A DNA stretch of 64,000 nt from Psychrobacter nivimaris (GTDB lineage: Bacteria; Pseudomonadota; Gammaproteobacteria; Pseudomonadales; Moraxellaceae), in the NCBI RefSeq assembly GCF_009812035.1, contig NZ_VZIZ01000022.1:1-64000 (forward strand), in the 5' to 3' direction. The notes under the pieces were generated by a model. That model searched no databases. It worked only from the letters and a program-made list of their open reading frames with translations, and had not been told where the DNA came from. Made by a program: the position numbers and the translations under genes. Positions 14,580 to 20,009 of this stretch are shown piece after piece. The stretch's first letter is position 1. The number at the start of each line of letters is the position of its first letter.

Positions 14580-15821
14580 ATGAATGCAAAAAATCTAGAG
14601 AATTCTATCAACGCGACCTTGCCACCAACGCCTTACTATGTGCTTGATGAAGCGGCCATCGTTGCCAATATGAAAATCATCGCTAGGCTATGTGAGCTGT
14701 CTGGTGCAAAGGCATTATTAGCACTCAAATGCTTTGCCACATGGGGTGTTTTTGATGTGATGCAGCCTTATCTGCATGGTACGACTTCGTCTTCACTTAA
14801 CGAAGTCAGATTGGGCTATGAAACCTTTGGCAATAACGATGATGCCAGTAACAGCGATAAAAAAGAAACGCACGCTTATAGCGTTGCCTATAGTGCAGAC
14901 GAAATCCCTGAAGTATTGAACTATGCGGATAAAATAATCTTTAACTCAATCTCACAGCTCAACGCTTTTAAAGCGCAAGCCGCCGCGCAAAATATACCTG
15001 TAGGTCTACGACTCAACCCTAAGACCAGCAACTCATCGTTTTTGATTGCTGATCCTGCACGCCCATTTAGCCGTCTTGGTGAACATGACAAAGATAAAAT
15101 CGCAGCGGTACTTGGCGATATCACTGGCGTCATGATTCATAACAATTGCGAGAATGACAGTTTTGAAGCCTTTAGTGAAAGCTTGGCTGATATCGAAGAA
15201 AGATTTGGTGATGTCTTAGCGCAGCTTGAATGGGTGAGCTTGGGCGGTGGTATCCACTTTATCGCGCCTGATTATCCATTAGAGAAGCTAGCTGCACGTT
15301 TGAAAGCGTTTAGCGAAACCTATGGGGTGCAAGTGTATCTTGAGCCAGGTGAAGCCAGTATTCATGGCGCAGGTACTTTGGTGACGACGGTGTTAGACAC
15401 TATGCATAATGAAAAAAATCTAGCAGTCGTCGATGCTTCTATCGAAGCGCATATGCTTGATCTATTGATTTATCGTGAGTCCGCACCGATTGCTGCGATT
15501 AATCATACAGCTGCCGATATTGCGCCTATTGGCAATCCTGCAGAAGCTGCACCGTCTGAAGCTGATGCTGAGTCGGCAGACCATACCCTTATTTACGGCC
15601 GTTCTTGCTTGGCAGGTGATATCTTTGGTGAGTATGCATTACCGAGTAATCTTCAGATAGGCGATGAAATCGCCTTTGGTAATGCTGCTGGTTATACGAT
15701 GGTTAAGAAAAACTGGTTCAACGGTGTCAACATGCCAGCGATAGTCATCTGCCGATTAGATGGCAGTATCGATATCCAGCGTGAGTTTGATTATCAAGAT
15801 TATAAAGCCAGCTTGTCTTAA
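14580..15821 (+). CDS. nspC: Carboxynorspermidine/carboxyspermidine decarboxylase
   Basis: This PLP enzyme of the alanine-racemase-fold type decarboxylates carboxy(nor)spermidine to (nor)spermidine, the last step of the alternative polyamine route. The PLP lysine is Lys50 in LLALKCF. A Gly-rich phosphate-binding loop SLGGGIHF lies at about 220-227, LEPGEA at about 256, and the catalytic Cys343 is in GRSCLAGDIFGEY. A length of 413 is somewhat above the usual 380 because of Ala/Asp/Glu-rich insertions (for example about residues 310-333). Its partner synthase gene is 275 bp downstream, separated by a candidate promoter and an inverted repeat. Confidence 0.95.
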   Translation: MNAKNLENSINATLPPTPYYVLDEAAIVANMKIIARLCELSGAKALLALKCFATWGVFDVMQPYLHGTTSSSLNEVRLGYETFGNNDDASNSDKKETHAYSVAYSADEIPEVLNYADKIIFNSISQLNAFKAQAAAQNIPVGLRLNPKTSNSSFLIADPARPFSRLGEHDKDKIAAVLGDITGVMIHNNCENDSFEAFSESLADIEERFGDVLAQLEWVSLGGGIHFIAPDYPLEKLAARLKAFSETYGVQVYLEPGEASIHGAGTLVTTVLDTMHNEKNLAVVDASIEAHMLDLLIYRESAPIAAINHTAADIAPIGNPAEAAPSEADAESADHTLIYGRSCLAGDIFGEYALPSNLQIGDEIAFGNAAGYTMVKKNWFNGVNMPAIVICRLDGSIDIQREFDYQDYKASLS

Positions 15822-15939
15822 CGCGTTACTTTCGTGACTTTTCTACATTAGAAAACAAAGGCTTAGTCTTAATAGTGGGTAATTTTAAGGTATCTGCTAT
15901 TGATACATTATTTTTTACCGATAAGGGAATAAAAATTGT

Positions 15940-15945
15940 TATAAT
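15940..15945 (+). promoter_or_regulatory. Candidate -10 element ahead of the carboxynorspermidine synthase gene
   Basis: A perfect TATAAT lies between nspC and the next gene. No strong -35 is present (the best is TTACCG at 15915-15920, 19 bp away). If used, transcription would start at about 15952, inside the 14-bp inverted repeat that begins at 15949. Confidence 0.5.
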
Positions 15946-15948
15946 CGC

Positions 15949-15981
15949 GTCGGGCAAATAATGGAGTATTATTTGCCCGAC
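15949..15981 (+). promoter_or_regulatory. Perfect 14-bp inverted repeat at the predicted transcription start
   Basis: Arms 15949-15962 (GTCGGGCAAATAAT) and 15968-15981 (ATTATTTGCCCGAC) flank a 5-nt centre, GGAGT. It is not followed by a T-run, so it is not an ordinary terminator. Its place just after TATAAT fits either an operator for a dimeric repressor or a stable 5'-terminal mRNA hairpin. The downstream leader to the TTG start is about 115 nt. Confidence 0.6.
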
Positions 15982-16096
15982 GGGTGCGTGGGTTTTCCTC
16001 GGTCTTCCTTTTTAATTCACGCATATTATTCACTCGTTTCTGTTTTGCATAGCCGCTATCAATGGTATCGACAGGGACACAAAGGAGGATTGTTCA

Positions 16097-17371
16097 TTGA
16101 ACACAAACCAACAAGCTAAGCCCAACAAAAAAGACGTACTGATCATCGGAGCAGGCGGTGTCGCTCAAGTGGTCGCGCATAAATGTGCGATGCACAATGA
16201 TGTGCTTGGCGAGATCCATATCGCCTCACGTACCAAAGACAAATGCGATGCCATCGCGCAGAGCGTAAAAGAAAAAGACAGCTTTAAACAAGCTGCAGTC
16301 TTGCATACCCATCAGGTTGATGCGATGGACAGCCAGGCACTTGTGCAGCTGATACAAGACACAAAAATACAAATACTTATCAATGTTGGCTCGGCATTTA
16401 TCAATATGACCGTTCTAGAAGCTTGTATTGAAACAGGCACGGCATATATAGATACGGCTATTCATGAAGACCCACGTAAGATTTGTGAGACACCGCCGTG
16501 GTACAACAACTACGAGTGGCAACGCAAACAGCGCTGTGCAGACAACAATATCACTGCTATTTTAGGTGCAGGTTTTGATCCTGGTATGGTCAATGCATAC
16601 GCGCGTCTGGGCTATGACATGATGGATAAAGGTTCAGTGACTGATATTGACATCATCGATATCAATGCGGGTAGCCATGGCAAATATTTTGCGACTAACT
16701 TTGACCCAGAGATCAACTTCCGTGAGTTCACCGGTACGGTTTACTCTTGGCAAGACAGCAAGTGGCAGTCTAACAAAATGTTTGAAGTCAAACGTACGGA
16801 CGATTTGCCAGTTGTGGGTGTGCAAAACAGCTATCTAAGCGGTCATGATGAAGTGCATTCATTGTCAGCCAATCTAGATGTACCGAACATTCGCTTTTGG
16901 ATGGGCTTTGGTGAGCATTACATCAATGTCTTCACTGTCCTACAGAGCTTAGGACTATTGTCTGAGCAGCCAGTGATGACTGCTGAAGGTCAAGAAGTTG
17001 TGCCACTAAAAGTTGTTAAAGCAGTACTACCAGATCCAAGCTCACTTGCACCGAACTATACAGGCAAGACCTGCATTGGTGATAACGTCAAAGGCAAGAT
17101 CAATGGCGTTGAGACTGAAGTGTTTATCTATAATGTCTCAGATCATAAAGATGCTTACAACGAAGTTGGTAGCCAAGGTATCTCGTATACCGCAGGCGTG
17201 CCACCTGTTGCTGCTGCGATACTGGTCGCGACTGGCGAATGGGATGCAGGCAAGATGGTCAACGTCGAAGAGTTAGATGCCAAGCCATTTATCAATCTAC
17301 TAAATAAGATTGGTCTACCAACGCGTATCAAAGATAGCGAAGGTGATAGAGCACTTGAGTTTGATATTTAA
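16097..17371 (+). CDS. Carboxynorspermidine synthase (saccharopine dehydrogenase family)
   Basis: The enzyme reductively condenses aspartate semialdehyde with diaminopropane or putrescine to carboxynorspermidine or carboxyspermidine, the substrate of NspC. The protein has 424 residues, a Rossmann motif IIGAGGVAQ at 16-24 and the saccharopine-dehydrogenase-like core ('YIDTAIHEDPRK', 'ILGAGFDPGMVNAYARL'). It starts at TTG 16097: a full AAGGAGG (16082-16088) sits 8 nt ahead and no alternative ATG is suitable. Pairing with nspC supports the polyamine assignment over lysine biosynthesis. A terminator follows directly. Whether diaminopropane or putrescine is the true substrate cannot be read from the sequence; no diaminobutyrate pathway genes are in the window. 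Confidence 0.92.
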   Translation: MNTNQQAKPNKKDVLIIGAGGVAQVVAHKCAMHNDVLGEIHIASRTKDKCDAIAQSVKEKDSFKQAAVLHTHQVDAMDSQALVQLIQDTKIQILINVGSAFINMTVLEACIETGTAYIDTAIHEDPRKICETPPWYNNYEWQRKQRCADNNITAILGAGFDPGMVNAYARLGYDMMDKGSVTDIDIIDINAGSHGKYFATNFDPEINFREFTGTVYSWQDSKWQSNKMFEVKRTDDLPVVGVQNSYLSGHDEVHSLSANLDVPNIRFWMGFGEHYINVFTVLQSLGLLSEQPVMTAEGQEVVPLKVVKAVLPDPSSLAPNYTGKTCIGDNVKGKINGVETEVFIYNVSDHKDAYNEVGSQGISYTAGVPPVAAAILVATGEWDAGKMVNVEELDAKPFINLLNKIGLPTRIKDSEGDRALEFDI

Positions 17372-19391: not shown

Positions 19392-20009
19392 ATGCGTATT
19401 CGTAAACTGTTCAAATTTGAAAATGCTCACATCGTTCGTAATTGTAGTTCTGAGCGTTGTAAGCATTCGATTCATGGTCACAGCTATCAGATTGAGCTGA
19501 TCCTTGAGGCCACTCGTTTAGACCATGGGCAAATGGTTTATGACTTTGGCCTACTAAAATCTTCTATCAAAGACATTATCGATAGCTTTGATCATGCTAT
19601 TTGTTTTTGGAACAAAGATGATCCTGAGTATGTCGCAGCGTGTAAGAAATTTAGCGCACGTTGGATAAGCTTGCCAGTTTCACCATCGGCAGAGCAGTTT
19701 TCACGAGTGATATTCTTTTGGGCGCAAGAAATACTACGTCAGACACAAATGCAAAATGGTGAAGCTGATGTCAGCGTGTACTCAGTGATTGCCCACGAGA
19801 CGGCGACAGGGTATGCACAGTGTTTTGCTGATGATGTTGCAAACGCTCAAATGGGTAAGCTAGTCTTAGAAGACTTTGAATTCAGTGAGCAGGTTCGTGC
19901 TGAGTGGACTGACTCTGAGCTGTATGCCAAGCTGATTCGCGGTGAAAGCTTTACCAATCCAACCGTAACCATGCAGGTACAGACAGAGCAGGTTCAGCCT
20001 AATGTGTGA
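19392..20009 (+). CDS. queD: 6-carboxytetrahydropterin synthase-like protein (QueD family)
   Basis: Members convert 7,8-dihydroneopterin triphosphate to 6-carboxytetrahydropterin in queuosine/preQ0 synthesis, or act as related pyruvoyl-tetrahydropterin synthases. The zinc ligands His13, His28 and His30 and the catalytic Cys23 (pattern C-x4-HGH) are all present. The 'DSFDHAICFW' and 'HETATGYA' active-site segments follow. At 205 residues it is clearly longer than E. coli QueD (121), with an insertion in the middle and a C-terminal extension of about 45 residues, a long variant I associate with Moraxellaceae. tsaE overlaps its end by 8 bp, so both tRNA-modification genes appear translationally coupled. 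Confidence 0.82.
   Translation: MRIRKLFKFENAHIVRNCSSERCKHSIHGHSYQIELILEATRLDHGQMVYDFGLLKSSIKDIIDSFDHAICFWNKDDPEYVAACKKFSARWISLPVSPSAEQFSRVIFFWAQEILRQTQMQNGEADVSVYSVIAHETATGYAQCFADDVANAQMGKLVLEDFEFSEQVRAEWTDSELYAKLIRGESFTNPTVTMQVQTEQVQPNV

What the first reader, a model, noticed from the sequence alone, without database searches (positions are those of the whole stretch)
15940..15981. Perfect 14-bp inverted repeat placed at the predicted start of the polyamine synthase mRNA
GTCGGGCAAATAAT and its exact inverse flank a 5-nt centre, 3 bp after a perfect TATAAT, with no T-run. It could be an operator for a dimeric regulator or a 5' hairpin controlling mRNA stability or translation of the TTG-started gene about 115 nt downstream. 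It lies between two enzymes of the same pathway, so it may set their ratio, perhaps in response to polyamines.
Basis: partly seen in the sequence, partly recalled or inferred. Interest (0 to 1): 0.6.

Follow-up and report, generated by a model that had tools for sequence, protein, structure and literature searches.

The report
Conserved RNA switch before polyamine gene
The perfect inverted repeat is real and is the front hairpin of a conserved folded leader RNA that appears to hide the ribosome-binding site of a polyamine-making enzyme in Psychrobacter and some Moraxella, which makes it a candidate new riboswitch.

Summary
The repeat exists, 15 bp per arm (15948-15962 / 15968-15982), single copy in its genome. 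It is not the main feature. Directly after it (15981-16092) lies a ~112-nt leader RNA far more conserved than its surroundings: 97.9% majority identity in its first 45 nt against 66% at third codon positions and 60% upstream. It precedes carboxy(nor)spermidine dehydrogenase (CASDH) in 101 of 101 CASDH-bearing Psychrobacter genomes and 4 of 9 Moraxella, one copy per genome; no other gene was found behind a convincing copy. Two helices covary (P1, P3). The 27-nt P1 loop holds an uninterrupted complement (one G-U) to the Shine-Dalgarno region of the UUG-started gene; together they would form a pseudoknot that blocks translation. No Rfam family matches. Best explanation: a translational, probably metabolite-sensing leader on the committed step of spermidine-type polyamine synthesis. 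Pseudoknot pairing (no covariation), transcription start, ligand and direction of control are inferred.

The parts
14580..15821 (+). nspC / carboxy(nor)spermidine decarboxylase (CASDC), upstream gene of the same pathway
   Evidence: TIGR01047 E 1.3e-121, 405.6 bits, just under the 409.05 cut-off
15940..15945 (+). probable -10 element TATAAT (TTGTTATAAT) of the CASDH promoter
   Evidence: a TATAAT ends 31-46 nt before the leader in 83 of 99 loci; not scored as a promoter; transcription start about 15951-15953 inferred
   Evidence: 15-bp perfect arms, 5-nt loop; pairing kept with compensatory changes in relatives
15981..16092 (+). conserved structured leader RNA (candidate riboswitch), whole element
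   Evidence: R1 130.4 bits, E 8.5e-29 in own genome; R2 128.8 bits; this sequence is in both training sets; conservation
15984..15990 (+). P1 5' strand (GUGCGUG)
   Evidence: 3 of 7 pairs with changes on both sides, 99.7% of cells paired; 8 parsimony WC-to-WC changes
16018..16024 (+). P1 3' strand (CACGCAU)
   Evidence: as P1 5' strand; letters checked
16003..16011 (+). anti-Shine-Dalgarno strand in the P1 loop (UCUUCCUUU; pairing extendable to 16000)
   Evidence: 97.1% of cells paired, no covariation
16036..16042 (+). P3 5' strand (GUUUCUG)
   Evidence: 6 of 7 pairs with changes on both sides, 94.5% of cells paired; 21 parsimony WC-to-WC changes
16072..16078 (+). P3 3' strand (CAGGGAC)
   Evidence: as P3 5' strand
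16081..16089 (+). AAAGGAGGA, Shine-Dalgarno region paired to the P1 loop
   Evidence: complementary to 16003-16011; 12 contiguous pairs, G-U counted, with 16000-16011 in this sequence
16097..17371 (+). CASDH, carboxy(nor)spermidine dehydrogenase, UUG start
   Evidence: NF043000 E 1e-123, under its cut-off; PF03435 and PF16653 over theirs

Best explanation
The region 15948-16092 is the 5' leader of the CASDH mRNA. After it comes a conserved aptamer-like domain: stem P1 with a 27-nt, nearly invariant, pyrimidine-rich loop, a linker, a variable hairpin P3, then the Shine-Dalgarno sequence. The P1 loop pairs with the Shine-Dalgarno region and makes a pseudoknot with a hairpin in its outer loop. 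Formation of the pseudoknot blocks initiation at the UUG codon. The most likely trigger is a metabolite of the pathway that stabilises it (spermidine or norspermidine, or their carboxy precursors), giving feedback on the committed enzyme. Shown: conservation, covarying P1 and P3, complementarity, gene association. Inferred: transcription start, simultaneous formation of P1 and the pseudoknot, ligand, sign of control, role of the 5' hairpin.
For: Covariation on 53 distinct leaders: 54 cells with changes on both sides against a shuffle mean of 10.8 (0 of 500), 97.1% of cells paired against 39.7-68.4% when slid; 8 (P1) and 21 (P3) WC-to-WC changes by parsimony. Association with CASDH in 101 of 101 Psychrobacter genomes that have the gene and 4 of 9 Moraxella; one copy per genome. 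Samples of 348 family, 390 order, 369 class and 398 phylum genomes (overlapping) gave no convincing copy before another gene (weak matches listed under Tried and rejected). Three Psychrobacter genomes without a CASDH match (G012, G080, G103) have no leader match either. No uORF is conserved. No Rfam match to a bacterial leader over its gathering score. No spermidine synthase (speE) match in this genome, so CASDH/CASDC looks like the main triamine route.
Against: The pseudoknot helix has no compensatory change, and its SD strand is fixed by the ribosome anyway. Shuffled P1 loops give an uninterrupted complement of 9 nt or more in 1358 of 5000 cases and of 12 nt in 46 of 5000, so composition alone accounts for part of the match; 11 of 53 leaders lose its outermost pair and one (L100) loses three pairs. 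Without pseudoknots P1 and the anti-SD helix are competing folds (P1 about 0.35, anti-SD helix about 0.65 at 37 C), so they may be alternatives, not partners. In A2, 2 of 500 shuffles reached the observed number of pairs with changes on both sides. No ligand, transcript or expression data. Association with a single gene in two genera gives no second target to narrow the ligand. Five of nine Moraxella with CASDH have no leader match. The promoter scan does not support the inferred promoter.
Confidence: 0.6

Rival explanations
1. The leader is a structured translational control element without a small-molecule ligand: it is bound by a protein or small RNA, or sets a constant or temperature-dependent rate of CASDH synthesis (RNA thermometer in cold-living bacteria).
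For: No ligand known; predicted competition between P1 and the anti-SD helix shifts with temperature (inner P1 pairs 0.65 at 4 C, 0.35 at 37 C).
Against: Near-invariant loop and linker letters that pairing does not need are more than a simple thermometer needs; the element is also in Moraxella catarrhalis and M. cuniculi, which live on warm-blooded hosts (recalled).
Confidence: 0.3
2. The inverted repeat is a DNA operator for a dimeric regulator overlapping the start site. It could coexist with the leader.
For: Position at the -10/+1 region; perfect palindrome; exact CGGGCAAA/TTTGCCCG half-sites in 41 of 99 loci.
Against: Half-site gap is 13, 20, 22 or 10 bp (19, 13, 5 and 4 of 41 loci), arms change in matched pairs, single copy in the genome, no hairpin-distance TATAAT in 16 of 99 loci that keep the leader.
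Confidence: 0.07
3. The hairpin is a terminator or processing site for the upstream nspC transcript.
For: Strong hairpin between two genes; a weak 5-pair terminator-like site at 15974-15986 on the + strand.
Against: No U-run after the 15-bp stem; a TATAAT ends 31-46 nt before the leader in 83 of 99 loci, as expected for a start, not an end.
Confidence: 0.04
4. The conservation reflects a short leader peptide (GTG at 15984) with translation-coupled control.
For: In 49 of 99 loci the frame reads the same 22 codons, and it is open past codon 13 in most others.
Against: Start is GTA in 3 of 99 loci, the frame is shifted by a 1-nt longer spacer in 5 of 99, it stops after 5 codons in L074, and P1 compensations alter the amino acids.
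Confidence: 0.04

Closest known systems
PreQ1-II riboswitch (RF01054)
   Same: HLout pseudoknot with four paired regions, one of them pairing the Shine-Dalgarno sequence; translational control (PMC11625349: passages and section 6 seen).
   Different: No covariance-model match; described there as limited to Bacillota and before queT; ours is in Psychrobacter and Moraxella before CASDH.
Spermidine riboswitch (SAM-I variant)
   Same: Controls polyamine biosynthetic genes (PMC10853860: abstract and sections 5 and 8 seen).
   Different: That one is a SAM-I-type four-stem-junction aptamer acting by transcription termination; our leader has no SAM-family match and no evident terminator.
odc1 (uORF-25-1) motif of alphaproteobacteria
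   Same: Pseudoknotted leader on a polyamine gene with a UUG start and sequestered RBS (PMC8632094: passages and section 19 seen).
   Different: There the RBS lies in P1 and an 11-aa uORF is conserved; here the RBS lies in the pseudoknot strand and no uORF is conserved.
ompA-type 5'-terminal stem-loop mRNA stabiliser (recalled, no call)
   Same: Hairpin at the 5' end of the mRNA; here sequence varies while pairing is largely kept.
   Different: Function not tested here; start site not mapped.

Membership tests
PreQ1-II riboswitch (RF01054) | match to the Rfam covariance model | tested here: not met
   no RF01054 match at E up to 10 in 15930-16110 nor at E up to 2 in 8 relatives' loci
PreQ1-II riboswitch (RF01054) | HLout pseudoknot with the SD as one strand | tested here: inconclusive
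   complementarity kept in 53 leaders (97.1% of cells) but without covariation
PreQ1-II riboswitch (RF01054) | binds preQ1 | not testable with these tools
   needs a binding assay
Spermidine riboswitch (SAM-I variant) | SAM-I type four-stem junction | tested here: not met
   no SAM family match; P1/P3/pseudoknot architecture differs
odc1 motif | conserved 11-aa uORF beside the main UUG start | tested here: not met
   no conserved reading frame from the leader's GTG. A second UUG at 16090-16092 begins 1 nt after GGAGG; conservation of a peptide from it was not tested
Riboswitch (general) | conserved structured domain in the 5' leader of a metabolic gene, with an expression platform | tested here: met
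   the platform (SD sequestration) is inferred
Riboswitch (general) | direct selective ligand binding that changes expression | not testable with these tools
   no binding or expression data
Dimeric-regulator operator | fixed half-site spacing and recurrence at other regulated genes | tested here: not met
   gap 10, 13, 20 or 22 bp between species; single copy in genome (exact octamers only)

The most novel reading that the evidence does not exclude
A new riboswitch class of Psychrobacter and Moraxella that senses a (nor)spermidine-pathway metabolite through a Shine-Dalgarno-containing pseudoknot and gives feedback control of CASDH, unrelated to the SAM-I-derived spermidine riboswitch.
Probability: 0.42. 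Interest if true: 0.8.

Novelty: new member of a known kind. Interest (0 to 1): 0.68.

Why it matters
Polyamines bind RNA strongly, yet according to PMC10853860 (introduction read) no definitive spermidine riboswitch class had been shown before the SAM-I variant reported there in 2023. A second, unrelated architecture on the alternative CASDH/CASDC route would show how bacteria without spermidine synthase control spermidine, and it gives a compact, testable RNA.

Tried and rejected
Operator reading: disfavoured by varying half-site spacing, paired changes and single genomic copy. Terminator: no U-run. Leader peptide: frame not conserved. Known RNA family: none in Rfam; the matches seen (Thr_leader, sR1, MIR161, and idnO and SPRY4-IT1_2 in relatives' loci) are far under their gathering scores, and MIR161 merely fits the hairpin. 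Weak model matches in G153 (E 0.056), G327 (E 0.052) and G1000 (E 0.0045) were read and judged chance: none precedes a CASDH frame in the stretch translated, and G1000 lies beside a frame open for over 130 codons; with R2 and filters off over the small set they still score 18.6-26.3 bits.

Of the 88 stretches of the genome contigs pattern scan, four have strong R1 matches (P. submarinus, M. cuniculi, M. catarrhalis, uncultured Moraxella; E under 1e-10); 80 of 88 were given and 8. Eight further matches at E 0.015-0.99 and three at E 0.026-0.36 were taken as chance without reading them. The pattern was made to exclude the common Psychrobacter form (it demands a non-C at the third base of the P1 3' strand), so a foreign leader with C there would be missed. 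L235 (G294) has another hairpin with CUUCCUU in its loop before CASDH; no model match, left open.

Literature (open-licence library only): titles and abstract starts seen for the papers listed, 20 of 313, 6 of 6, 20 of 669, 20 of 376, 20 of 34, 11 of 11, 0 papers for carboxynorspermidine with 'leader RNA' and for carboxyspermidine with riboswitch, 8 of 22. None of those listed describes this leader by title or abstract start. The two listed papers that hold both carboxynorspermidine and riboswitch concern a c-di-GMP riboswitch reporter or cite it (passages of PMC8079147 and PMC8967002). PMC11109978 holds none of six terms tried.

Full report
OBSERVATION. The repeat is present as described, one base longer per arm than stated: 15948-15962 and 15968-15982, 5-nt loop. 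Sixty random sequences with the window's dinucleotide transitions gave no perfect repeat with arms over 12; the window has six with arms of 14 or more. The arm occurs at no other place in the 3.28-Mb genome. The genes on either side are CASDC and CASDH; both fall under their NCBIfam cut-offs, CASDC by about 3 bits, CASDH by nearly 390.

WHOSE GENOME. So genus g1 is Psychrobacter and g14 is Moraxella, by inference.

WHAT THE RELATIVES SHOW. CASDH is matched in 101 of 105 Psychrobacter genomes. I fetched 99 of the 101 loci and oriented them; a CASDC match lies upstream in 99 of 99. The stretch from CGGG at 15981 to the SD is strikingly constant, while what lies before it drifts (its middle part was cut from the output, so the alignments were used).

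STRUCTURE. On 49 distinct leaders (A1) and on 53 including four Moraxella (A2) I counted pairs for P1 (15984-15990 / 16018-16024), P3 (16036-16042 / 16072-16078) and the loop/SD helix (16003-16011 / 16081-16089). A2: 97.1% of 1192 cells paired; 54 cells with changes on both sides against a shuffle mean of 10.8 (0 of 500); for the count of pairs with such changes (9, mean 5.2) 2 of 500 shuffles reached it; slid versions pair 39.7-68.4%. P1 has 3 and P3 has 6 pairs with changes on both sides; the SD helix has none. A2 was fitted to P1 and P3 and leans towards them; A1 (MAFFT, not fitted) gives the same picture: 21 cells against 2.8, 0 of 500 on every measure. I chose the helices after seeing these sequences. 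A rough tree of under 90 codons of CASDH gives 8 WC-to-WC changes in P1 and 21 in P3. The SD helix is complementary over 9 nt in most sequences and over 12 nt here, but shuffled loops reach 12 in 46 of 5000 and 9 or more in 1358 of 5000, so its support is complementarity plus conservation only. With nested folding, P1 and this helix are rival states; since one strand lies in the P1 loop they can also form together as a pseudoknot.

In 83 of 99 loci a TATAAT ends 31-46 nt before the leader, 50 distinct segments; 16 loci were left out (no TATAAT, or other distances). In these 50, 464 of 600 arm cells pair (77.3%), against a mean of 71.6% (maximum 75.3% in 1000) when 3' arms are re-dealt and about 40% when slid. 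The outermost pair is standard in 13 of 50 and the next in 27 of 50. The stem core begins at the sixth base after TATAAT, near the expected first transcribed base. The window's exact segment is shared by 14 loci, itself included; many other species have weaker stems, some only -6 to -8 kcal/mol. Where both half-sites are exact (41 loci) the gap is 13 (19), 20 (13), 22 (5) or 10 (4). A 5'-terminal protective hairpin fits better than an operator; this is inference.

DISTRIBUTION. R1 finds the leader once per genome in 102 of 105 Psychrobacter genomes (101 with CASDH, plus G086, cut near a contig end) and in 4 Moraxella genomes at E under 1e-10; two further weak matches (G153, G327) were judged chance. 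CASDH without a leader match: five Moraxella (G310, G313, G319, G323, G325) with short gaps to CASDC, and G294, G346, G292. Samples of 390 order, 369 class and 398 phylum genomes add no match outside Psychrobacter except the weak G1000; the samples overlap and stricter filters were in force. The genome contigs pattern scan adds no strong match outside the two genera, with the limits stated under Tried and rejected.

MECHANISM. CASDH joins aspartate semialdehyde to putrescine or diaminopropane (PMC10413350, passages seen). This genome has no spermidine synthase match, and no speA or dat match over cut-off (related matches under cut-off exist), so CASDH and CASDC look like its route to spermidine or norspermidine. 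A leader that can bury the SD of the committed enzyme is most simply a feedback switch. Ligand, sign and thresholds are not shown by anything here.

COMPARISON. The topology resembles that of preQ1-II (PMC11625349), but the covariance model does not match, so it may work like it without being one. The spermidine riboswitch in print is a SAM-I variant acting on termination (PMC10853860). The odc1 and potE motifs are other leaders linked to polyamine genes (PMC8632094); odc1 differs in anatomy, and potE is described as lacking an obvious expression platform. Among the papers listed by my searches none describes this leader.

VERDICT. Observation confirmed; interpretation partly supported; the finding leads to a candidate new cis-regulatory RNA class on a polyamine gene.

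Noticed in passing
L137 (G086:C165) 1-83: In one Psychrobacter genome the leader is intact up to UUUUUAA and then runs into unrelated sequence near a contig end, and no CASDH match was found in that genome; perhaps a mobile-element insertion or assembly break in the P1 loop.
   Followed up: partly
L235 (G294, upstream of CASDH): A different hairpin (UUCGGG...CCCGAG) with CUUCCUU in its loop precedes CASDH in a third genus (by eye); no match to the models, possibly a diverged relative of the leader.
   Followed up: partly
L236-L240 (Moraxella G323, G310, G319, G325, G313): Five of nine CASDH-bearing Moraxella show no leader match; CASDC and CASDH are then separated by only about 70-135 nt.
   Followed up: partly
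window 19392-20009: A QueD-like 6-carboxytetrahydropterin synthase gene lies 2 kb downstream of CASDH (TIGR03367, under its cut-off); its nearness to a preQ1-II-like fold is probably coincidence.
   Followed up: no
L081, repeat at -214 to -164 from CASDH: A perfect inverted repeat with 22-nt arms and 7-nt loop lies just upstream of the TATAAT in one species.
   Followed up: no
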